DNA of 64,000 bases from Hoeflea marina (GTDB lineage Bacteria; Pseudomonadota; Alphaproteobacteria; Rhizobiales; Rhizobiaceae): assembly GCF_003182275.1 (NCBI RefSeq), contig NZ_QGTR01000002.1, positions 372,001-436,000 of the forward strand. Direction: 5' to 3'. This document shows positions 49,226 to 58,974 of the stretch, one piece after another; within the stretch, counting starts at the first letter, position 1; each line of letters starts with the position of its first letter. The notes below the pieces were generated by a model. It did not search any database. It was not told where the DNA came from and saw only the letters and a program-made list of their open reading frames with translations. A program made the position numbers and the translations under genes.

Positions 49226-49884
49226 CTCTTGGGTCTCTCTTTCCAGTTTGACTGCGCCGCGTCGACCAAAGGCGCAACTTGGCGTTATGGGACCGGCGGA
49301 GATCCCAATCGGATCTGGAACGAGAAAATTACCCAGAAAAATATCGGATGCCTCGCCGGTTGCCTCGCGCGACGGTCGTCAGAAAGCATCGGGAGTTTAT
49401 TGCGCGGTTCCCGGGCGCTATAAGCTCATAATTACCCAAGGCCACAAGATACGAATTGAACTCACTAAAACAGATCGCGTTCTTAGTTCGATCACAATCC
49501 CTCACATAATAGAGTTCCTGCACTCGAATACAACGACCACTTCTAGCCAATGTGTTTTCACCGTTCTCACCGTCTCTCGCGCATCGTTGCAGAAGACCTG
49601 TTCGAAGACGACAGGCAGCTGACCCTCGTCGATATCGTCATTGTGGCTTGTCGAGCAGCGCCGGCGCCGGTCCAGCAGCGCCGGCGCCGGCATCGAGGAC
49701 CGCCGCCTGATGCAGCCGGGAAGAAATGCCGATTGCTTACGAAATCTTCAGCATGCCTTCGAGAAGATTCTCTCCGGGCCGCAGGGCGCGCGATTCCATT
49801 AAGCCTCTGTTTACGAGGCGAGCATACCCGTTGCTACGAAGGTGGGACCGGTGCGGTTGCCACCCGGGTTCTGGGAGCGGTCAC
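49226..49884. other. Gene-free region with moderately AT-rich core
   Basis: A 659-bp gap between the kinase gene start and the TadG-like gene. About 49400-49560 is AT-richer than its surroundings and may hold the divergent promoters. Open frames here are short and unconvincing. A two-unit tandem repeat lies at 49651-49690. Confidence 0.5.
49651..49690. repeat. 20-bp tandem repeat, two units
   Basis: Units 49651-49670 and 49671-49690 differ at one base (the third position). Each contains AGCAGCGCCGGCGCCGG. They lie in the non-coding leader of the TadG-like gene. Function is unknown; the GC-rich self-complementary core could fold. Confidence 0.8.
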
Positions 49885-51489
49885 ATGCTGAGGCGGTTTG
49901 GGGAGTTCGGGCGTCTTCTCGCGTGCGAGCGCGGCAATTTCGGCATCATGATGGCGGTGCTGGCGCCGACGCTGTTCGGCGCGGCCGGGCTGGCCGTCGA
50001 CTACACCAACATGGCGCGCGCCAGGGTGGAGCTGCAGAACTCGGTGGATGCCGCCGTTCTGGCCGCATCGCGAAAGACCAGCAGCGTCGCCGACCGCAAG
50101 ACCACCTATCAGCAGACGCTGTCGGCGCAGCTGGCCGCCAATCCGGACATGACGCTCGCCAGCCAGAGCATCGACCTCAAGATCGGCATCAACTACATCG
50201 AATCCACGGGCCACGCGTCGGCCACCATCCCGCTGATGTTCATCGGCAAGTTCATGCCCAACACCGTCTCCGTGACCGCCTCGACTTATTTCTCCACCCG
50301 TGACATCGAGCTGGCGATCGCGCTCGACAACACCGGCTCGATGGGCACCGGCGGCATCTCGGCACTCAAATCGGCCTCGCATGCGCTCATCGATGCGCTG
50401 AGCTCGATCGACACCAGCACCCAGAGCCTCAAGGTCGGCCTCGTGCCCTTCGTCACCGCCGTCAACGTCAATGGCGACGGCTTTGACGCGAGCTGGATCG
50501 ACACTACCGGCAAGGGGCTCTACAACGGCTGGACCTTCCTGACCGACGCCCAGCGCACCAAGCGGAAATCCAGCGGCAACAACAACTCGGATTTCACCGC
50601 CGCCACCTATCCGCACCACAGCAATCTGTTCGCCTGGTCGAAGACCACCTGGAAGGGCTGCGTCGAGGCCCGCCCCGCGCCCTACAACACCAACGTGGAC
50701 GCACCCGACCCGGCCAAGCCGAACACGCTGTTCGTGCCCTATTTCGCCGCCGACGAGCCGGGCAACCGGAGCAGCGCCGGCGGCAACAGCGCCACCGCGT
50801 TCAACAATTCCTGGCTCAACGACAGCGTGTCCGGCGACGATGCCTCGGTCCAGCGTTCGACAGCCAAGTACAAGAGCGAAACCGCGGTGACCAAGGATTT
50901 CAAGGACACGACGGGGCCGCTGACGCTCGGCCCGAACCGTGCCTGCCCGACGCCGATCGTGCCGTTGACCTCCACCCTGTCCAAGGTCAACACCGGCATT
51001 GACGCCATGCAGTACTGGAACGGATCGGGCACCAACATCGCCGAGGGCCTGGCCTGGGGGTGGCGGCTGCTCTCGCCGACCGCGCCCTACACCGAGGCGG
51101 CCGACTTCGATACCGAAAAGGTCTCGAAGATCCTGGTCATCATGACCGACGGCACCAATGTGTCCTACGGCTCGAGCAGCACCGTCAACAAGTCGGACTA
51201 CGGCTCCTACGGCTTCCTGTCCGACAAGCGCATCAACTCGACCACCACCCAATCCGACGCCGAGGCCTATCTCAACACATCGACCGCCAGCATGTGCACG
51301 GAGATCAAGAAGCTCGGAATCGAGGTCTATACGGTGCTCTACAACACGACAGCGTCCTCCGTGGTGACGATGTTCACCAACTGCGCCACGCGCAAGGAGA
51401 ACTTCTTCATGGCCAGCGACGTTGCCTCGCTCAAGAGCGCCTTCTCCGCGATCGGCCAATCGGTGTCGGGCGTCCGGCTGACCAATTGA
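49885..51489 (+). CDS. TadG-like pilus assembly protein with vWA domain
   Basis: A 534-residue protein. The N-terminal TadE/TadG-type segment (ERGNFGIMMAVLAPTLFGAA, a single membrane helix, then LAVDYTNMARARVELQNSVD) leads into a von Willebrand A domain. That domain has a MIDAS-like motif IALDNTGSMGTGG and a second metal site in ILVIMTDGTNVSYGSS. It is probably anchored in the inner membrane with the vWA domain outside. Such proteins belong to Flp/Tad pilus systems, but no other tad gene is in the window. ATG 49885 follows GGGAG. Confidence 0.87.
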   Translation: MLRRFGEFGRLLACERGNFGIMMAVLAPTLFGAAGLAVDYTNMARARVELQNSVDAAVLAASRKTSSVADRKTTYQQTLSAQLAANPDMTLASQSIDLKIGINYIESTGHASATIPLMFIGKFMPNTVSVTASTYFSTRDIELAIALDNTGSMGTGGISALKSASHALIDALSSIDTSTQSLKVGLVPFVTAVNVNGDGFDASWIDTTGKGLYNGWTFLTDAQRTKRKSSGNNNSDFTAATYPHHSNLFAWSKTTWKGCVEARPAPYNTNVDAPDPAKPNTLFVPYFAADEPGNRSSAGGNSATAFNNSWLNDSVSGDDASVQRSTAKYKSETAVTKDFKDTTGPLTLGPNRACPTPIVPLTSTLSKVNTGIDAMQYWNGSGTNIAEGLAWGWRLLSPTAPYTEAADFDTEKVSKILVIMTDGTNVSYGSSSTVNKSDYGSYGFLSDKRINSTTTQSDAEAYLNTSTASMCTEIKKLGIEVYTVLYNTTASSVVTMFTNCATRKENFFMASDVASLKSAFSAIGQSVSGVRLTN

Positions 51490-52051: not shown

Positions 52052-52221
52052 AGCCGGTCGCGACCGCCCCCGGGCGTCGCCAGAGTGGCCGGGCCCGCAT
52101 CTCCGCCGGCGCCGGAAGGTGAGGTGACCCGGTACTTTACATCGGGCCCGGCAGATGGAATCATCCCGTATCGTGAATCGACCGTCCGGCAATGTCGCCA
52201 TGTCAAAGCGGAGACCCATCA

Positions 52222-52323
52222 ATGCCACGCAAGCCCTATCTGAAGCCCAGCCTGACAAAGCATTCCCTGAAATTGCAGACGGTGACGGCGGCCACGCCTC
52301 CGTCCCAGATCAAGCCCGTCTGA
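52222..52323 (+). CDS. Small RiPP-precursor-like peptide 1
   Basis: A 33-codon gene with ATG preceded by GGAGA at 8-bp spacing. Residues 6-24 read YLKPSLTKHSLKLQTVTAA; the tail is TPPSQIKPV. The second small peptide (54901-54996) shares 11 of those 19 positions, including Tyr, Lys-Pro, Leu, Lys and V-T-A-A, but has a different tail. A conserved leader with YxxPxL and a Thr near the leader/core border plus a variable core is the pattern of RiPP precursors. It lies 182 bp before the ligase gene. No modifying enzyme of a known RiPP class is adjacent, so the class is undefined. Confidence 0.7.
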   Translation: MPRKPYLKPSLTKHSLKLQTVTAATPPSQIKPV

Positions 52324-52471
52324 GGCGGTCGCGGGCGAGGCTGCATGAAACCTGGGGCAGCGGGCCGGCACGGTCCGTTGCCTTTGTCCGTCCGCGGCAC
52401 CGCCGGCTGACAATCCGGTGATGGATCCAGAAGTCTGTTTGCGCCGGACGCATTTCATGATCTGATCGACA

Positions 52472-52500
52472 CGGCGACCGGAGCGAAGCTCCGGTCGCCG
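52472..52500 (+). other. Strong hairpin between peptide 1 and ligase genes
   Basis: A 13-bp perfect stem (52472-52484 with 52488-52500) with a GAA triloop, ending 5 bp before the ligase ATG. There is no T-run, so it is not a classical terminator. In RiPP operons a hairpin after the precursor gene commonly reduces expression of downstream enzymes or stabilises the precursor mRNA (established pattern); here that role is inferred. Confidence 0.75.
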
Positions 52501-52505
52501 GCCTG

Positions 52506-53975
52506 ATGCCAGGATCTGATGCAGCAAGGGTGCGCGTGAACCGAACCGATCCCTCCCTTTGTTCCATGCTCGGCGCCGTTCCCGGGACAGCCGCGCTTGT
52601 CGATGTCAGGAGCGGCGAGCGTGTCGGCAAGGCGCGGCTCGTCGAGCTTGTCGCACGCCGCACCGGCGAATTCGCCGACATCGGGGTGAGACGCGGCGAC
52701 CGTGTCATCGTCGCCGAGGCCAATCCGCTGCAATACCTCGTCTCGATCTTGGCCTGCTGGGCCGGCGGCCATGTGGCGGTCGCGGTCAACCCGGCCATCT
52801 CCGCTCACGAGCAGCAGAATGTCATCGACATGACCGGTGCGACCTGTTTTCGCGGCGACTGCAGGGCAATCGTCGCGCAGGCGGAGGAGCCGGAGACCGC
52901 GGCGCCGTCGCCGCTGCATCCCGACGAGCCCGCCCTCATCCTGATGACATCGGGCACCACCGGCCGGCCCAAGGGCATCGTGCATTCGCTGCGCGGGCTG
53001 ACGGCGCGGATCGCGCTGAACATTGCCCATCTCGGACGACCCGTGCTCAGCGACACGCTCTGCATGTTGCCGGTGTTCTTCGGTCATGGCCTCATCGGCA
53101 ACGTGCTCACGCCGCTTCATGCCGGCGGCACGGTGCTGATGTGGCCGACGCCGGACATGGCCGAGCTGCGTGGCCTCGGCGCGCTCATCGACGACCACCG
53201 CATCCGTTTTCTCTCCTCCGTGCCGACCATGTGGAAGATGGCGCTGCGCCTTGCCGAACAGCCGAAGCGACCGCTTGAACGCATCCATATTGGCTCCGCC
53301 CCGCTGTCCGCCGGCCTGTGGCAGCAGGTCTGCGACTGGGGAGGCACAAGGCAGGTCTTCAACATGTTCGGGATGACGGAGACCGCCAACTGGATCGGCG
53401 GCGGTGCGATCGACGAGGGCGGTGCCCGCGACGGCCATGTCGGGCAGATGTGGGGCGGGAGCGCGGCCATCCTCGCCGACACCGGCGACATTCTCCCCTA
53501 TGGTCGCGGCGAGGTGCTGGTCCAGACGCCCTCGATCATGCTCGGCTACTGGCGCCGTCCCGATCTCGACGCCGAAGCCTTCATCGGCAACTGGTTCCGC
53601 ACCGGCGACATCGGCGTGCTCGACGAGGCCGGAACGCTGGCGCTGACCGGCCGCATCAAGACCGAGATCAACCGCGCCGGGATCAAGATCCAGGCCGAGG
53701 AGATCGACATGCTGCTCGAACGCCACGAGGCGGTCGCCGAGGCCTGCGGCTTCGGCATTCCCGACCCGGTGTCCGGCGAGGCGGTCGCCGCTGCCGTCGT
53801 GCTGAAGGCCGGCGCCGAAGCCGATCCGGAAGCCCTCAAGGCCTGGTGCCGGCGGCAAGCCCGGCCGGATGCCGTGCCGGCGCGGATCGCCATCGTCGAG
53901 GCGATTCCGCGCAACGATCGCGGCAAGGTGGTCCGGGCCGATGTCCGGGCGTTCGTTGAAGGGCGGATGTCGTGA
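52506..53975 (+). CDS. ANL-superfamily adenylate-forming ligase (acyl-CoA/acyl-ACP synthetase-like)
   Basis: A 489-residue adenylating enzyme. Core motifs are intact: LILMTSGTTGRPKGI (A3), NMFGMTET (A5), WFRTGDIG (A7), TGRIKTEINRAGIKIQ (A8) and IPRNDRGKVVR with the A10 lysine. It would activate a carboxylic acid, most simply a fatty or aryl acid, and load it onto CoA or the ACP encoded two genes downstream. ATG 52506 abuts the hairpin without a clear ribosome site; GTG 52536 preceded by AAGGG is a good alternative. It overlaps the GNAT gene by 4 bp (GTGA). Confidence 0.88.
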   Translation: MPGSDAARVRVNRTDPSLCSMLGAVPGTAALVDVRSGERVGKARLVELVARRTGEFADIGVRRGDRVIVAEANPLQYLVSILACWAGGHVAVAVNPAISAHEQQNVIDMTGATCFRGDCRAIVAQAEEPETAAPSPLHPDEPALILMTSGTTGRPKGIVHSLRGLTARIALNIAHLGRPVLSDTLCMLPVFFGHGLIGNVLTPLHAGGTVLMWPTPDMAELRGLGALIDDHRIRFLSSVPTMWKMALRLAEQPKRPLERIHIGSAPLSAGLWQQVCDWGGTRQVFNMFGMTETANWIGGGAIDEGGARDGHVGQMWGGSAAILADTGDILPYGRGEVLVQTPSIMLGYWRRPDLDAEAFIGNWFRTGDIGVLDEAGTLALTGRIKTEINRAGIKIQAEEIDMLLERHEAVAEACGFGIPDPVSGEAVAAAVVLKAGAEADPEALKAWCRRQARPDAVPARIAIVEAIPRNDRGKVVRADVRAFVEGRMS

Positions 53976-54568
53976 AGCGCCCCGCCGCCACGCGCGTCGG
54001 GCTTGGCGACCCGCTGGAGACGGCGCGTTTCATCCTCAGGCCGCTCGGATACATCGAGGCCTTCCGGCTGACCGCCTCCTGGCGCAACGATCCGGAGGTG
54101 CTGATCGCCCTGTTCCAGTCGCTCAAGCCCCGTTCGCTGCGCAAATGGATGCGCTCGCCGCTGCTGCCGCGGCCAAAGGTCCGCTTCGCCTATGCCATCA
54201 TCGACAGGGAAAGCGGCCGGTCCATCGGCGTGCACACCGTGGCGTTGTCGGGCTACCGATCAGCCTATTTCACCGTGGCGGTGAGCGACAGGGACTGGTG
54301 GGGAAAGGGCGCCGTGCTCGAGACCCGGGCAACGCTGATCAACCATTTCATCCGCCATGCGGGCACGGAGCGCTTCTTCGGCATGGTGCATGGCCGCAAC
54401 CTGTCCTCGATCTTCAATTACCAGCGGCTGGGGTTTTCCCATGTGGGAAGCTGGCACCGGCACAAGCAGGATCCGGTCAGCGGCGAGATTTTCGACGTGG
54501 TGCTGTTCGAGTTGTTCCGGGAGCAGTGGCAGGCCGGACCCTTTGCGGAGGCGATCGATGAACCATGA
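53972..54568 (+). CDS. GNAT-family acyltransferase
   Basis: A 198-residue GNAT protein. The acyl-CoA binding turn is in VSDRDWWGKGAVLETRATLI and the C-terminal half has NLSSIFNYQRLGFSHVGSWH, as in RimJ/RimL-like enzymes. The start is a GTG overlapping the ligase stop, and the gene overlaps the ACP gene by 11 bp, so the three are translationally coupled. Known GNAT enzymes in goadvionin and selidamide biosynthesis attach fatty acyl groups to RiPP peptides. A similar acyl transfer to the small peptides here is a hypothesis. Confidence 0.85.
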   Translation: MKRPAATRVGLGDPLETARFILRPLGYIEAFRLTASWRNDPEVLIALFQSLKPRSLRKWMRSPLLPRPKVRFAYAIIDRESGRSIGVHTVALSGYRSAYFTVAVSDRDWWGKGAVLETRATLINHFIRHAGTERFFGMVHGRNLSSIFNYQRLGFSHVGSWHRHKQDPVSGEIFDVVLFELFREQWQAGPFAEAIDEP

Positions 54569-54845
54569 AGCCGAAGCGCGCCGGATCGCGGCGGAAGCGC
54601 TGCAGGCACAGGCTCCCCTGTCCATTGACGACACCATGGCGTCCCTGCCGCAATGGGACAGCCTTTCCCATATGAGGGTGATCCTGGAACTCGAGGCGGC
54701 GCTCGGACGGCAACTGTCGGTCGAGGAAATCATGTCGGTCACCAGCGTGCGAAGCATCGCCGGCCTGCTGGCGGCCGGGCAGGGTGGCGAGGGCTCTGAT
54801 AACGGCCCTGCAGAAGCGATTGACAGCCCAAACAGGGATTGCTAA
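54558..54845 (+). CDS. Acyl carrier protein (phosphopantetheine-binding)
   Basis: A 95-residue carrier protein. The attachment serine is Ser35 in LPQWDSLSHMRVILELEAAL. The C-terminal helix includes VEEIMSVTSVRSIAGLLAAG, followed by an acidic tail. It overlaps the GNAT gene and follows the ligase, a layout in which ligase loads, carrier holds and GNAT transfers an acyl group. It differs from the second ACP of the region (56462-56719), so two separate carriers exist. Confidence 0.9.
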   Translation: MNHEAEARRIAAEALQAQAPLSIDDTMASLPQWDSLSHMRVILELEAALGRQLSVEEIMSVTSVRSIAGLLAAGQGGEGSDNGPAEAIDSPNRDC

Positions 54846-54900
54846 CGCATCTCCCGACGGCTGTCCGGCATCCCGCAGGCAGCGTGCCGGGAGCTGAAAA

Positions 54901-54996
54901 ATGAAGCGTGCCTATGTGAAGCCCGTATTGGTCAAGTCGAAACTGACCATCCAGTCCGTGACTGCGGCACCCTGCATCAGCGATTCCTGCGCATAG
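54901..54996 (+). CDS. Small RiPP-precursor-like peptide 2
   Basis: A 31-codon gene with GGGAG seven bases before the ATG, 55 bp past the ACP stop. Residues 5-23 read YVKPVLVKSKLTIQSVTAA, and the tail is PCISDSCA with two cysteines. The first 23 residues parallel peptide 1; the tail does not. Lasso and related precursors carry a comparable YxxPxL...T leader (family knowledge), but no lasso cyclase, RRE protein or leader peptidase is seen nearby. An intrinsic terminator follows at 55056, so this is the last gene of the plus-strand set. Confidence 0.7.
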   Translation: MKRAYVKPVLVKSKLTIQSVTAAPCISDSCA

Positions 54997-55055
54997 GCTG
55001 CTGCGCCCGGCGGCGGCCGGGCCGGTCCGTCCCGCCTGGCCATCCCCTCGATCGG

Positions 55056-55081
55056 GCGACGGAGACAGCCGTCGCTCTTTT
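55056..55081 (+). terminator. Rho-independent terminator after peptide 2
   Basis: A 7-bp stem (55056-55062 with 55069-55075) and 6-nt loop are followed by TCTTTT (55076-55081). It ends the plus-strand peptide-ligase-GNAT-ACP-peptide set. The remaining 170 bp to the convergent ketosynthase stop show no gene. Confidence 0.75.
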
Positions 55082-55249: not shown

Positions 55250-56461
55250 CTACCAGGCGCGGAACGCCACCACGGCATTGGCGCCGCCGAAGGCGAAGGC
55301 GTTGCTCAGCGCGACATTCACCTTACGCTTGCGCGCCACGTTCGGCGTCACGTCGAGATCGCAGTCGGGATCGGACTCGGTGTGGTTGGCTGTCGGCGGC
55401 ACCACCCCGGTGCGGATCGCCTGGATGCAGGCGATTGCCTCGATGGCGCCGGATGCGCCCAGGCAGTGGGCATGCATCGACTTGGTCGATGACACGGAGA
55501 TCCCGTCGGCATGCGGGCCGAACACGGACCGGATGGCCTGGGTCTCGATCCTGTCATTGGCCTGGGTGGCCGTGCCGTGGGCGTTGATGTAGTCGACATC
55601 CGATGGCGAGAGTCCGGCATCCTTGAGGCAAAGCCGCATCGCCTCGGCCGGTCCCTCGACGCTTGGCGAGACGATGTCGAGCGCATCGGCGCACATGCCG
55701 ACGCCGCAGATCTCGGCGAGGATGGTGGCGCCGCGGCGCGTGGCGCTTTCCAGAGTTTCCAGCACCAGCGCCCCGGCGCCGTCGCCGAGTACTAGGCCTT
55801 CGCGGTCGCGCGAAAACGGCCGGCAGGCCGTTTTCGCCATGATCCGCATCGATTCCCAGCCCTTGAGCACGCCGTAGGACAGCGGCGCTTCGGCGCCGCC
55901 CGCCACGATGGCGTCGGCGCGCCCCATGCAGAGAAGATCGAAGGCCGTGGCGAGCGCGTGGTTGGAGGAGGTGCAGGCCGAAGTGACGCCGAGCACGGGA
56001 CCCCTCAACCCATGGATGATGCTGGTCTGCATCGCCGCGGATGCAGGCATCGCCTTGGGCACTGTGAAGATCTCGGTGCGCTTCCTGCCCTCAAGGAACA
56101 CGGAGCGATAGCTCTCCTCCACCGCATCGGCGCCGTAGACCCCCGTGCCGATGACGGCGCCGACGCGCATGTCCGCTTGCGCGCGCGCGTCGAGCCCGGC
56201 CTGCGCCAGGGCTTCGCCGGCGGCGATGATCGAAAGCAGCCCGAAGCGGCCCATCGATGCCAGCTGCCGCCGGTCAAGTCCGGCATCGGGAAGCTCGCCG
56301 ATCTGGCCGGCGATGGTCGGCTTGAGATCGTCCATGTCGGCAATCGCCAGAGGCGTGATGCCGCAGACGCCGTTGCGCATGGACTCCCAAATCGCGGTCA
56401 CGTCCGTGCCCAGGCAGCACAACCCGCCCAGACCGGTGACCACCACGCGCGCCCGGCTCAT
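55250..56461 (-). CDS. Beta-ketoacyl synthase (FabF/NodE-like)
   Basis: A 403-residue ketosynthase. The nucleophile is Cys163 in VTSACTSSNHAL; the histidines are His295 (INAHGTATQAND) and His332 (KSMHAHCLGASG), so the catalytic triad is complete. It would extend an acyl chain carried by the ACP encoded immediately upstream (adjacent stop and start codons). A dedicated ketosynthase/ACP pair outside the main fab locus indicates a specialised acyl chain, as for NodE/NodF in rhizobia. It converges on the peptide/ligase set. Confidence 0.93.
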   Translation of the reverse strand: MSRARVVVTGLGGLCCLGTDVTAIWESMRNGVCGITPLAIADMDDLKPTIAGQIGELPDAGLDRRQLASMGRFGLLSIIAAGEALAQAGLDARAQADMRVGAVIGTGVYGADAVEESYRSVFLEGRKRTEIFTVPKAMPASAAMQTSIIHGLRGPVLGVTSACTSSNHALATAFDLLCMGRADAIVAGGAEAPLSYGVLKGWESMRIMAKTACRPFSRDREGLVLGDGAGALVLETLESATRRGATILAEICGVGMCADALDIVSPSVEGPAEAMRLCLKDAGLSPSDVDYINAHGTATQANDRIETQAIRSVFGPHADGISVSSTKSMHAHCLGASGAIEAIACIQAIRTGVVPPTANHTESDPDCDLDVTPNVARKRKVNVALSNAFAFGGANAVVAFRAW

Positions 56462-56719
56462 TCAGGCATCCTTGCCTGTGAGGACGGCGACGAGGGCGAC
56501 GATGTTGTCGACGGTCTTCAGTTTCTCCCAGGCGGCCACGGTGTCGAGCTCGACTTCGATGTTGAAGCTCTCCTCGATGTCGAAGATGATCTCGGTCAGG
56601 TCAAGCGAGTGGATGTCGAGATCGGCAAGCGCCGTGTCGTGCGTGATCGAAGCAGGGTCCAGTTCGGCCCGCTCGGCGATGATGCGCCGCGTGGTTTCAA
56701 ATATTTCCTGGTTTCTCAA
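56462..56719 (-). CDS. Acyl carrier protein
   Basis: An 85-residue ACP with the phosphopantetheine serine Ser38 in LADLDIHSLDLTEIIFDIEE. The start is taken as TTG 56719 because it gives the usual ACP length and has AAAGGG upstream; another TTG at 56764 would add 15 residues. Its stop codon directly abuts the ketosynthase ATG. It is expected to be the partner of that ketosynthase. Confidence 0.88.
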   Translation of the reverse strand: MRNQEIFETTRRIIAERAELDPASITHDTALADLDIHSLDLTEIIFDIEESFNIEVELDTVAAWEKLKTVDNIVALVAVLTGKDA

Positions 56720-56848
56720 TTCCCACAGCCCTTTCCCGCGTTTCGACCTGACGATTGGCTGCAAAGGTCTTGCACCTGCAATCGCGTTGCTGTCAATTCG
56801 CCGGCGGCAGTTTCTGGGCTCGAAAGCCCGCTCAAGGTGAGGTGGCGT

Positions 56849-57748
56849 CTAGACCGTGACGTATTTGCGCCAGTCGTGCTCCTCGACGAAGCCGAGCATC
56901 TCGCGGATCTTGCGGTTGGAATAGAGCGCCTCGTTCTCGCCCAGTTCGCGCGTCAGCGGCACGCCCGGGAAGAAGCGCTCGGCCAGCTCGCGGGCCGGCA
57001 GGTTGACGGAATTGGTGTCGTTGCCGGCATTGAAGACCTGATAGCCCAGGCCATCGGTCTTCAGGCACCGGTCGACGATCTGGCCGAGGTCGCGCGCGTC
57101 GATATAGCAGAAGATGTTGCGGCGGCGGACTTCCGGATTAGCGAAGAAGCCGGGGAACCGCTCGTATTCGTGCGGCTCCATCACGTTGCCGATCCTGAGC
57201 GCATAGATGTCGGCGCCGGAGCGGCGCTGGAAGCTGCGCGCGGTCTGTTCGTTGACCACCTTGGACAGGCCGTAGGAATCCATCGGATTGACATCCATGT
57301 CCTCTTCCACCGGCAGCGCCGGCGGATTGGCGATGCCGTCGGCGAAACAGACGCCGTAGGTGGTCTCGGACGAGGCGATGATGATCTTCGGGATGCCGAG
57401 TTTCACCGCCGCCTCGATGACGTTGTAGGTGCCGACGGTGTTGACGCGGAAGGTCTCGTTGTCTGGCTTGAGCAGGATCCTCGGCACGGCGGCGAAATGC
57501 ACCACCGCGTCGAAATGCGGCACGCCGGTGCCGGGCTCCAGTTCGTCGAAATTGGCGTAGCTGGTCATGGCGTTGAACATCTCGCCCGACCGGGTGATGT
57601 CGGCGGCGAGATTGTCCACGCCCGGATGATCAAGTGGCGCGAGATCGATGTTGAGCACGCGGTGGCCCTGATCGAGCAGATAGGCAATGACATGGCGGCC
57701 GGCCTTGCCGGACCCGCCGGTGAACAGAATTCTGAGCTTTCGGGTCAT
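56849..57748 (-). CDS. NAD-dependent epimerase/dehydratase (extended SDR)
   Basis: A 299-residue extended short-chain dehydrogenase. The cofactor motif FTGGSGKAGRHV and the active-site DSYGLSKVVNEQ (Tyr-x3-Lys), with SSETTYG supplying the Ser/Thr, are intact. AGGAG precedes the ATG at 57748. It lies 129 bp upstream of the ACP-ketosynthase pair on the same strand and could belong to that pathway, or act on a nucleotide sugar or uronate as other family members do. The substrate is not determinable here. Confidence 0.85.
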   Translation of the reverse strand: MTRKLRILFTGGSGKAGRHVIAYLLDQGHRVLNIDLAPLDHPGVDNLAADITRSGEMFNAMTSYANFDELEPGTGVPHFDAVVHFAAVPRILLKPDNETFRVNTVGTYNVIEAAVKLGIPKIIIASSETTYGVCFADGIANPPALPVEEDMDVNPMDSYGLSKVVNEQTARSFQRRSGADIYALRIGNVMEPHEYERFPGFFANPEVRRRNIFCYIDARDLGQIVDRCLKTDGLGYQVFNAGNDTNSVNLPARELAERFFPGVPLTRELGENEALYSNRKIREMLGFVEEHDWRKYVTV

Positions 57749-57780
57749 ATGCGTCTCCTGTGCTGTGTCTGGCCTGTGGC

Positions 57781-58974
57781 CTAGACATGGCGCCCGGCGG
57801 CAACGCCCGACGACCATGCCCATTGAAAATTGTGACCTCCGAGATGGCCGGTGACGTCGACCACCTCGCCGATGAAGAACAGGCCCGCCACGCTGGTGCT
57901 TTCCATGCTCTTCTGTCTGAGGCCGGCCGTGTCGATGCCGCCCAGCGTCACTTCGGCGGTACGATAGCCTTCTGTGCCTCCAGGAACCAGATGGTGGGCG
58001 TGCACGGTGCCGGCAATCGCCTTCATCGCCGCGTTGCCGAGGTCGGCCAGCCGCGCCTGGGCCGGGCTCAAGTCTGTGCAGAGCTGTTGCGCCAGCCTGC
58101 GCGGCAGGATCTCGCCCAGCACCGAGACCGGCGCCGCCTTGGGTCGTTCTCCGCGCCCCGAAATCAGCTCGCCCGCAACATCGACTCCCGGCGCCAGATC
58201 GATCTCGATGGAGTCGCCCTCGCGCCAGTAGGAGGAGATCTGCAGCATTGCCGGGCCGGAGACACCGCGGTGGGTGAACAGCATCGCCTCGTCGAAGCTA
58301 GCCCCGTTGCAGCGCGCGGTGACCGGCAGCGACACGCCCGAAAGGTCCTTCCACTTCGGCGCCAGATGGTCGGGCCAGGTGAATGGCACCAGCGCCGGCC
58401 GCACCTCGGTGACCCGATGGCCGAACTGGCGCGCGATGTCGTAGCCGAGCCCGGTCGCACCCATCTTCGGGATCGACTTTCCGCCGGTGGCGACCACCAG
58501 GCTGGCGGCTCTGTGCCGGCCGTCGCTGGTTTCCACTTCATAGATGCCGGCGTCGTCCCGACTGGTCGAGTGAATGCTGGTCGACAGCATCAGCCTGACG
58601 CCGGCGTCGGCCATTTCGCGGGTGAGCATGGAAATGATCTCGCGCGCCGACCCGTCGCAGAACAACTGGCCCAGCGCTTTTTCGTGGAAAGCGATGCCGT
58701 GCCGCTCGACGAGCGCGATGAAATCGCGCTGGGTGTAGGCCTTCAGCGCCGAGATGGCGAAATGCGGATTGCCCGAGAGGAATGTCTTCGGGCTGCAATG
58801 GATATTGGTGAAGTTGCAGCGACCGCCGCCCGAAATGCGGATCTTCTCGCCGGGCGCGGACGCGTGATCGATGAGCGTCACCCGCCGGCCCCGCTTGCCC
58901 GCCTCGATGGCGCACATCATGCCGGCGGCGCCTGCGCCGAGCACGATCACATCTGTCATATCTGCCTGCGGCAT
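57781..58974 (-). CDS. HI0933/BaiN-like FAD-dependent oxidoreductase
   Basis: A 397-residue flavoprotein. The FAD motif is VIVLGAGAAGMMCAIEAGKRG with ISGGGRCNFTN, the family marker. The second nucleotide-related segment reads SLVVATGGKSIPKMGATG and the C-terminus is GLFFIGEVVDVTGHLGGHNF. This family includes BaiN, a double-bond reductase; most members are uncharacterised. ATG 58974 is chosen, with AGGA upstream. It is 32 bp upstream of the SDR gene on the same strand, so it may head that operon. Confidence 0.88.
   Translation of the reverse strand: MPQADMTDVIVLGAGAAGMMCAIEAGKRGRRVTLIDHASAPGEKIRISGGGRCNFTNIHCSPKTFLSGNPHFAISALKAYTQRDFIALVERHGIAFHEKALGQLFCDGSAREIISMLTREMADAGVRLMLSTSIHSTSRDDAGIYEVETSDGRHRAASLVVATGGKSIPKMGATGLGYDIARQFGHRVTEVRPALVPFTWPDHLAPKWKDLSGVSLPVTARCNGASFDEAMLFTHRGVSGPAMLQISSYWREGDSIEIDLAPGVDVAGELISGRGERPKAAPVSVLGEILPRRLAQQLCTDLSPAQARLADLGNAAMKAIAGTVHAHHLVPGGTEGYRTAEVTLGGIDTAGLRQKSMESTSVAGLFFIGEVVDVTGHLGGHNFQWAWSSGVAAGRHV

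What the first reader, a model, noticed from the sequence alone, without database searches (positions are those of the whole stretch)
52222..54996. Candidate fatty-acyl RiPP-like locus: two tiny peptides bracketing ligase, GNAT and ACP
Two previously easy-to-miss genes (33 and 31 codons) flank an overlapping ligase-GNAT-ACP set on the same strand, ended by a terminator. The peptides share a conserved N-terminal half and differ in the tail, as RiPP precursors do. GNAT enzymes are known to acylate RiPP peptides in goadvionin and selidamide pathways, but the pairing here with an ANL ligase plus free ACP, and without lanthipeptide, radical-SAM or lasso enzymes, does not match a class I know. I infer acyl activation, loading on ACP and GNAT transfer to the peptide's N-terminus or a Lys side chain.
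Basis: partly seen in the sequence, partly recalled or inferred. Interest (0 to 1): 0.92.

Follow-up and report, generated by a model that had tools for sequence, protein, structure and literature searches.

The report
Lasso-like acylated short peptide pathway
Two tiny genes beside an acyl-activating enzyme set look like members of a nine-gene family of very short peptide precursors that appear to be finished by a lasso-peptide-type machine lacking the ring-closing enzyme, so this bacterium may make a kind of small capped peptide not described before.

Summary
The two peptides belong to a family of nine precursors scattered over the same genome. All share a lasso-type leader (Y-x-K-P-x-L-x-K ...) and have very short variable cores. 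The same genome has a separate operon for an RRE (PqqD), a lasso B2 leader peptidase (over the NCBIfam cut-off), an HprK-like kinase and an NTP_transf_5 protein. In 16 of 79 relatives found through the ligase, these four genes sit in the same locus as the ligase-GNAT-ACP set; 11 of the 16 have 1-10 profile-matched precursors there. In 297 genomes of the order, all 10 with precursors also had the kinase, which 13 had in all.

The nearest published kind is the 2026 LPP family of Bacillota. Acyl transfer to the peptide, probably its new N-terminus, is inferred, not shown. Nine ligases of the same clade lie in genomes with neither kinase nor precursors found. A sister ligase clade sits partly in nonulosonate clusters. 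"Fatty" is unsupported. New variant of a known kind.

The parts
52222..52323 (+). precursor peptide 1: leader MPRKPYLKPSLTKHSLKLQTVTA, predicted core ATPPSQIKPV
   Evidence: profile match E 1.2e-11; Y at -18, T at -2; cleavage site inferred from lasso precursors
52472..52500 (+). 13-pair hairpin between precursor 1 and the ligase; role unknown
   Evidence: strand folding z -6.5, 0 of 200 shuffles as good
52506..53975 (+). ANL-family acyl ligase (acyl activation, loads the ACP: inferred); start may be 52566
   Evidence: PF00501 179 bits, PF13193 62 bits; lies in the RiPP-linked side of the ligase tree, 35 rows
53972..54568 (+). GNAT acyltransferase, proposed to move the acyl group from ACP to the peptide amine
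   Evidence: PF13302; model pLDDT 94.4; nearest folds putative GNATs, SpeG, RimL/RimJ, a lasso peptide acetyltransferase at rank 38
54558..54845 (+). acyl carrier protein with WDSL pantetheine site
   Evidence: PF00550 26.5 bits over cut-off 20.8; sequence
54901..54996 (+). precursor peptide 2: leader MKRAYVKPVLVKSKLTIQSVTA, predicted core APCISDSCA
   Evidence: profile match E 1.8e-12
55054..55077 (+). hairpin followed by UUUU, possible terminator
   Evidence: strand folding z -3.2; not counted by the terminator scan

Best explanation
The locus is one satellite of a genome-wide RiPP system of lasso type without a linked macrolactam cyclase. Nine short precursors (30-33 aa) are encoded at five sites. 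Their YxKPxL leader is bound by the PqqD-like RRE encoded at C3. The HprK-like kinase phosphorylates a Ser/Thr of the core (often Ser-Gly), the NTP_transf_5 protein decorates that phosphate, and the B2 cysteine peptidase removes the leader after V-T-A or its like. The window module then caps the product: the ligase activates a carboxylic acid and loads it on the ACP, and the RimJ/L-type GNAT transfers it to the amine freed by B2 (the core N-terminus). Shown by sequence: the precursor family, the leader, the core operon, the linkage in other genomes, no cyclase gene found near these genes in this genome. Inferred: binding, every chemical step, their order, and that the acyl acceptor is the peptide. 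The acid's identity and the product's role are unknown.
For: Nine precursors in the genome. Core operon PqqD, B2 (48.4 bits, cut-off 33), HprK-related, PF14907 at C3:102.6-105.4 kb. 16 of 79 ligase relatives have all four core genes and the GNAT and ACP in the fetched locus, 3 more have one to three of the four (L070, L072, L087); these 19 are among the 32 loci on one side of the ligase tree; 0 of the other 47 (40 on the other side, 7 not placed) have any in the locus. Two further genomes not among those loci show the four genes beside the trio, though without a recognised precursor (L242, L246). Precursors and kinase: 10 of 10 in 13 of 297 genomes. All 54 distinct cores hold Ser/Thr, 33 hold [ST]G against 13.2 in shuffles (max 22); Y sits at -17 or -18. 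Lasso literature: YxxPxL at -17 to -12, Thr at -2 a recognition element for leader removal, a kinase phosphorylating core Ser (passages). GNAT fold of RimL/RimJ/SpeG type, one lasso peptide acetyltransferase at rank 38. Some clusters carry a formyltransferase, another amine-capping enzyme, with the trio (L045/L074, L077, L117) or, in L210, without it.
Against: Nine ligases of the same side (L060, L064, L065, L066, L075, L081, L083, L088, L134) lie in genomes where no kinase match better than E 6.7e-11 and no precursor was found, so the trio may serve something else; several are MAGs. Genus g3 has precursors and kinase but no GNAT (5 of 7 sampled genomes), so acylation is not obligatory. In this genome the trio is about 0.46 Mb, or a contig, away from the other seven precursors and on another contig than the core operon. 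Full clusters without a recognised precursor in the locus: L067, L068, L077, L242, L246; no precursor was found anywhere in the genomes of L067-L069 by profile, nor in two genomes with the kinase (of L080 and L131). No other genome of the genus has a comparable GNAT (0 of 17). No HPr kinase is among the 50 listed fold matches of the kinase. No acyl or peptide product is known.
Confidence: 0.6

Rival explanations
1. The RiPP system is real, but the trio acylates a group added to the peptide (for example an amino sugar put on the phosphate by the NTP transferase), not the peptide amine.
For: On the other side of the ligase tree 8 of 42 rows lie beside NeuB/PseC/PseG homologues, and 3 of these 8 (L090, L106, L127) have GNAT and ACP matches just after the ligase; GNATs of such clusters acylate amino sugars (recalled: PseH). 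In pseudomycoidin the NTP transferase is reported to add hexose to the phosphate (passage).
Against: I recognised no sugar-nucleotide gene family among those shared by three or more of the 20 full or near-full loci (read by eye); the passage on pseudomycoidin does not speak of an amino sugar.
Confidence: 0.2
2. The trio is unrelated to the peptides: a free-standing acyl transfer module for a surface glycan or lipid, with two dispersed precursors next to it by chance.
For: Nine ligases on the same side of the tree without kinase or precursors found in their genomes; four of them (L060, L064, L065, L066) are in the window's own set of eight.
Against: 19 of 32 loci on that side have RiPP genes in the locus, 0 of the other 47; 15 of 15 family genomes with the GNAT have the kinase; the bracket recurs in L094.
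Confidence: 0.15
3. An ordinary lasso peptide pathway whose cyclase lies elsewhere in the genome.
For: Leader, RRE and B2 are of lasso type; five Asn-synthase matches at four places exist in the genome; L073 has an Asn-synthase homologue in the locus.
Against: None of those matches is near the operon or the precursors; of the 16 full loci only L073 has a homologue of this genome's Asn synthases. Only 12 of 54 cores have D/E at positions 7-9 and 2 of 54 meet a simple lasso rule.
Confidence: 0.05

Closest known systems
Linear polyphosphorylated peptides, LPP (Popov et al., Nat Commun 2026, PMC13381572; outline, passages and sections 6, 7, 12 seen)
   Same: Discrete RRE, YxxP leader, HprK-like kinase, NTP transferase, no cyclase; variable C-termini
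   Different: LPP is reported as restricted to Bacillota, uses an SpI-type peptidase and an MsbA-like exporter, has precursors of 35-200 aa and another leader motif; the word acyltransferase does not occur in its text
Phosphorylated/phosphoglycosylated lasso peptides (paeninodin, pseudomycoidin, Bsf; PMC8498205, PMC10368454, passages)
   Same: YxxPxL leader (Bsf), B1 (RRE), B2 peptidase, HprK-like kinase, NTP transferase
   Different: Here no linked macrolactam cyclase; cores mostly lack the ring acid and are 6-19 aa; dispersed precursors; acylation trio
GNAT-acylated RiPPs: selidamides/nostolysamides, goadvionin, lipolanthines, lasso albusnodin (PMC13060382, PMC8498205, passages)
   Same: A GNAT encoded with a RiPP precursor
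   Different: Those are lanthipeptides, or a lasso peptide that is acetylated; the nostolysamide GNAT is a tandem GNAT tested with acyl-CoA; here a single-domain GNAT with its own ligase and free ACP
Ligase-GNAT-ACP sets in or near nonulosonate clusters (other side of the ligase tree)
   Same: Ligase, GNAT and ACP in the same order in 3 of 8 such loci
   Different: No RRE, B2, kinase, NTP_transf_5 or precursor match in any of the 47 loci not on the RiPP side; only five genomes of that side (L084, L086, L089, L090, L091) were searched whole, without a strong kinase match

Membership tests
Lasso peptides | B2 leader peptidase | tested here: met
   NF033537 48.4 bits, cut-off 33, at the C3 operon
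Lasso peptides | RRE and YxxPxL...T leader | tested here: met
   PF05402 45.8 bits; Y at -18, T or V at -2 in the genome's nine; lasso precursor models match only below their cut-offs, in 8 of 10 precursors tried, and neither window peptide matched
Lasso peptides | linked macrolactam cyclase (Asn synthase family) | tested here: not met
   PF00733 in this genome only at C6, C2, C8, C5, away from operon and precursors; of 16 full loci only L073 has a homologue
Lasso peptides | core with N-terminal Gly/Ala/Ser/Cys and Asp/Glu at 7-9 | tested here: not met
   D/E at 7-9 in 12 of 54 cores, 3 of 9 in this genome
LPP | RRE, HprK-like kinase and NTP transferase together | tested here: met
   the kinase only by weak sequence match (24 bits, cut-off 200) and a PEPCK-like fold (that HprK shares this fold is recalled)
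LPP | SpI-type leader peptidase in the cluster | tested here: inconclusive
   six neighbours of the C3 operon scanned: none is such an enzyme by name; one S24 peptidase domain (87 bits) lies 4.6 kb upstream in a repressor-like protein; no genome-wide search; B2 is present instead
LPP | MsbA-like transporter in the cluster | tested here: inconclusive
   no ABC exporter among the six neighbours scanned; an ABC exporter-like family lies in 4 of the 16 full loci
LPP | polyphosphorylated core Ser | not testable with these tools
   only the sequence pattern: Ser/Thr in 54 of 54 cores
GNAT-lipidated lanthipeptides (selidamide, goadvionin, lipolanthine) | lanthionine synthetase | not tested
   no search for one was made; 1 of 54 cores has Cys

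The most novel reading that the evidence does not exclude
A RiPP class of Alphaproteobacteria: linear, very short (6-19 aa), phosphorylated and N-acylated peptides, made from many precursors, in some genomes scattered, by one lasso-derived RRE/B2/kinase/NTP-transferase machine, with an exchangeable capping module (ligase-GNAT-ACP or formyltransferase).
Probability: 0.4. Interest if true: 0.85.

Novelty: new variant of a known kind. Interest (0 to 1): 0.74.

Why it matters
RRE-Finder reported almost 8,000 proteins for its discrete lasso RRE model, of which only about 4,000 co-occur with the lasso peptidase and cyclase (PMC7470986, passage). This gives one concrete idea of what some of the rest may do. 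It offers a testable pathway with a proposed acyl-ACP donor for a RiPP, and it shows that precursors can lie far from their enzymes, where cluster-based mining could miss them.

Tried and rejected
Plasmid collection (tblastn of the kinase): no match. The plain two-gene chance explanation: rejected by the nine-member family. Trio as exclusively RiPP: not upheld, see the nine genomes without kinase. Distant ligase-GNAT pairs L046 and L047: fall on the other side of the tree and no precursor was found in their genomes. FabF-ACP-epimerase genes at 55250-57823 as part of the system: I saw no such family recur in the clusters (by eye), so left out.

Rows dropped: L082, L101, L125, L132, L136, L137, L138 from the tree before building (short, distant or odd rows). 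Of these, L082's genome has a strong kinase match and four precursors, and L125's genome has no kinase match. L117 was left out of the core statistics, and one L062 precursor for lack of a start found by the script. L045 is the same record as L074, so only L074's cores were counted. L064's GNAT was left out of alignment A5 because its start was not resolved. The Asn-synthase hit in L042 (23 bits) is taken as noise because PF00733 does not list it. The VIA-align library was not available.

Literature: searches listed no paper whose title or abstract start describes this gene set; beyond listings I saw only the passages or sections named. The library holds open-licence PMC papers only, so 'not in print' is not shown.
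Full report
Observation. The two ORFs (52222-52323, 54901-54996) and the overlapping ligase, GNAT and ACP between them are there as described. The terminator claim is weak: the scan gives none, though a hairpin at 55054-55077 followed by UUUU folds well. The same scan gives one promoter-like site, 52136-52164, upstream of precursor 1 (0.3 expected by chance).

Family in the same genome. Searching the window's genome (5.26 Mb, 20 contigs) with precursor 2 gave nine places (E limit 10), and a 31-row profile that includes them gave the same nine with a wide gap to noise (6e-10 against 0.55). They lie at C1:273 kb, C1:880 kb, C2:424 and 427 kb (the window), C2:886 kb (two) and C4:185-186 kb (three). 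The sequences share YxKPxLxK and a following L-Q-x-V/A/I-T/V-A/S stretch (with small variations) and then differ. I saw no ligase-GNAT-ACP set beside the other sites in the gene lists (read by eye).

Maturation genes. The genome has one PqqD match over the cut-off and two NTP_transf_5 matches, one of them beside the PqqD at C3. There an operon codes for PqqD (45.8 bits), a B2 leader peptidase (NF033537, 48.4 bits against a cut-off of 33), an HprK-related protein (weak, 24 bits to TIGR04352, far under its cut-off of 200) and NTP_transf_5 (78.5 bits). Six neighbours of the operon are a fatty acid hydroxylase, a solute-binding protein, a family 2 glycosyltransferase, a TIM-barrel/dioxygenase protein, an oxidoreductase and an S24-domain protein. 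The kinase assignment was tested by structure: a model from 19 sequences (pLDDT 90.8) matches PEP carboxykinases best (E about 1e-8; the 50 listed matches are PEPCK entries, none is an HPr kinase); that HprK and PEPCK share a fold is recalled knowledge. Invariant columns include S156, G159, K160, T161, T162 and D177-D178.

Relatives. The GNAT search over 297 genomes of the order led to two loci with ligase, GNAT and leader-bearing small ORFs (L044, L045). Profiles made from L044, L045, L058 and the window found all of PqqD, B2, HprK and NTP_transf_5 in 16 of the 79, all 16 with GNAT and ACP, and one to three of the four in L070, L072 and L087. Precursors were found in 13 of the 79 loci by profile (11 of the 16), up to 10 in one locus (L085, L133); L069 and L076 have divergent ones seen by eye, and L067, L068 and L077 have none that I recognise in the locus, though four matches lie elsewhere in L077's genome. 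L094 repeats the window's bracket.

Ligase tree. 77 ligases (84 less the 7 dropped) give two sides (SH-aLRT 99, quick search). One has 35 rows: 19 with at least three of the four core genes in the locus or, for L044 and L045, seen there earlier (17 of the 79 loci plus these two; L045 and L074 are one record), the window, 6 with the kinase elsewhere in the genome (L087 among them, whose contig end holds PqqD and B2) and 9 without it. The other has 42 rows with no RiPP gene in the locus where tested, 8 of them beside nonulosonate genes. Whole-genome kinase searches covered only 24 genomes, five of them on this other side.

Co-occurrence. In the sample of 297 order genomes precursors (E 1e-5 or better) occur in 10 and the kinase (E 1e-20 or better) in 13, all 10 within the 13; the hypergeometric figure is 2e-16 by genome and 3e-7 by genus, and 0.0014 when genera used to build the profiles are left out. 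Three kinase genomes have no precursor (G077, G161, G282). Genus g3 has both in 5 of 7 genomes, with no GNAT match, so the trio is an accessory. In 28 further genomes searched with the precursor profile, 7 had precursors, all of them genomes with the kinase; none of the nine kinase-less ones on the RiPP side had any (for L076 and L077 the kinase is in the locus). In 394 genomes of the family 15 have a GNAT match at 1e-15 or better. L242 and L246 are not among the 79 loci and show the four genes beside the trio, without a recognised precursor. No other of the 18 genomes of the genus has a comparable GNAT (best 4.6e-6), so it is patchy.

Cores. With cleavage placed after [TVA][AS] by analogy, 54 distinct cores are 6-19 aa long; all have Ser or Thr; 33 have [ST]G against a shuffled mean of 13.2 and maximum of 22 (many are near-copies within one locus, so the excess is overstated); 29 have Lys, but only 3 of 9 in this genome. 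Y lies at -17 in 45 and -18 in 10 precursors. Published lasso leaders have YxxPxL at -17 to -12 and Thr at -2. The only amine common to all cores is the N-terminus, hence the proposed acyl site.

GNAT. A model from 33 sequences (pLDDT 94.4) has the single-domain GNAT fold; the top 50 include putative GNATs, SpeG, RimL, RimJ, bleomycin N-acetyltransferase and a lasso peptide acetyltransferase (9iy3, rank 38). This does not tell the acceptor or the acyl group. The nearest solved ligases by profile are oxalate-CoA ligases, then FadD13.

Other caps. A formyltransferase (PF00551) lies beside precursors in L045/L074, homologues are in L077 and L117, and L210 has the core genes, four precursor matches and a formyltransferase (62.6 bits) but no trio in the stretch. 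L134, in the no-kinase group, also has a homologue, so this gene is not specific to the system either.

Known work. LPPs are the nearest published kind, then phosphorylated lasso peptides and GNAT-acylated RiPPs. Passages on daptides, RiPP proteases and a Sphingomonas lasso peptide gave nothing closer. The set fails the lasso test (no linked cyclase, cores) and does not show LPP's peptidase and transporter where I looked, so I file it as a variant that works like an LPP/lasso hybrid with acylation. Confidence is about 0.9 for 'RiPP-like system', about 0.6 for the full mechanism with peptide acylation.

Noticed in passing
window 55250-57823 (-): Convergent genes for a FabF-type ketosynthase, a second ACP and an NAD-dependent epimerase end next to precursor 2; they could supply an acyl chain but I did not see them recur in the other clusters.
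   Followed up: partly
L117 11468-11866 (+): A precursor with the same leader is fused to a Peptidase_S74 chaperone domain (33 bits, cut-off 22).
   Followed up: partly
L073 2581-4470 (-): The only full cluster with an Asn-synthase homologue in the locus; its core lacks an acid at 7-9.
   Followed up: partly
L085 6262-7729 and 13076-13174 (-): Ten precursors with nearly identical cores (GANFSGKK...), unlike L133, whose ten cores mostly differ.
   Followed up: partly
L072 8813-10450 (+): Two GNAT matches in one cluster, and no B2 match in the locus.
   Followed up: no
window 52472-52500 (+): Very stable 13-pair hairpin between precursor 1 and the ligase; may be a repeat, attenuator or processing site.
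   Followed up: no
window 49726-51489 (+) and L043 15429-17858 (-): TadE/G-like pilus genes lie near precursors at two sites of this genome (Pfam Tad for one L043 gene; the others by eye); may be chance.
   Followed up: partly
G000:C1:855387-855968 (L059 8746-10236, -): A second NTP_transf_5 gene far from the operon, about 25 kb from the C1:880 kb precursor.
   Followed up: partly
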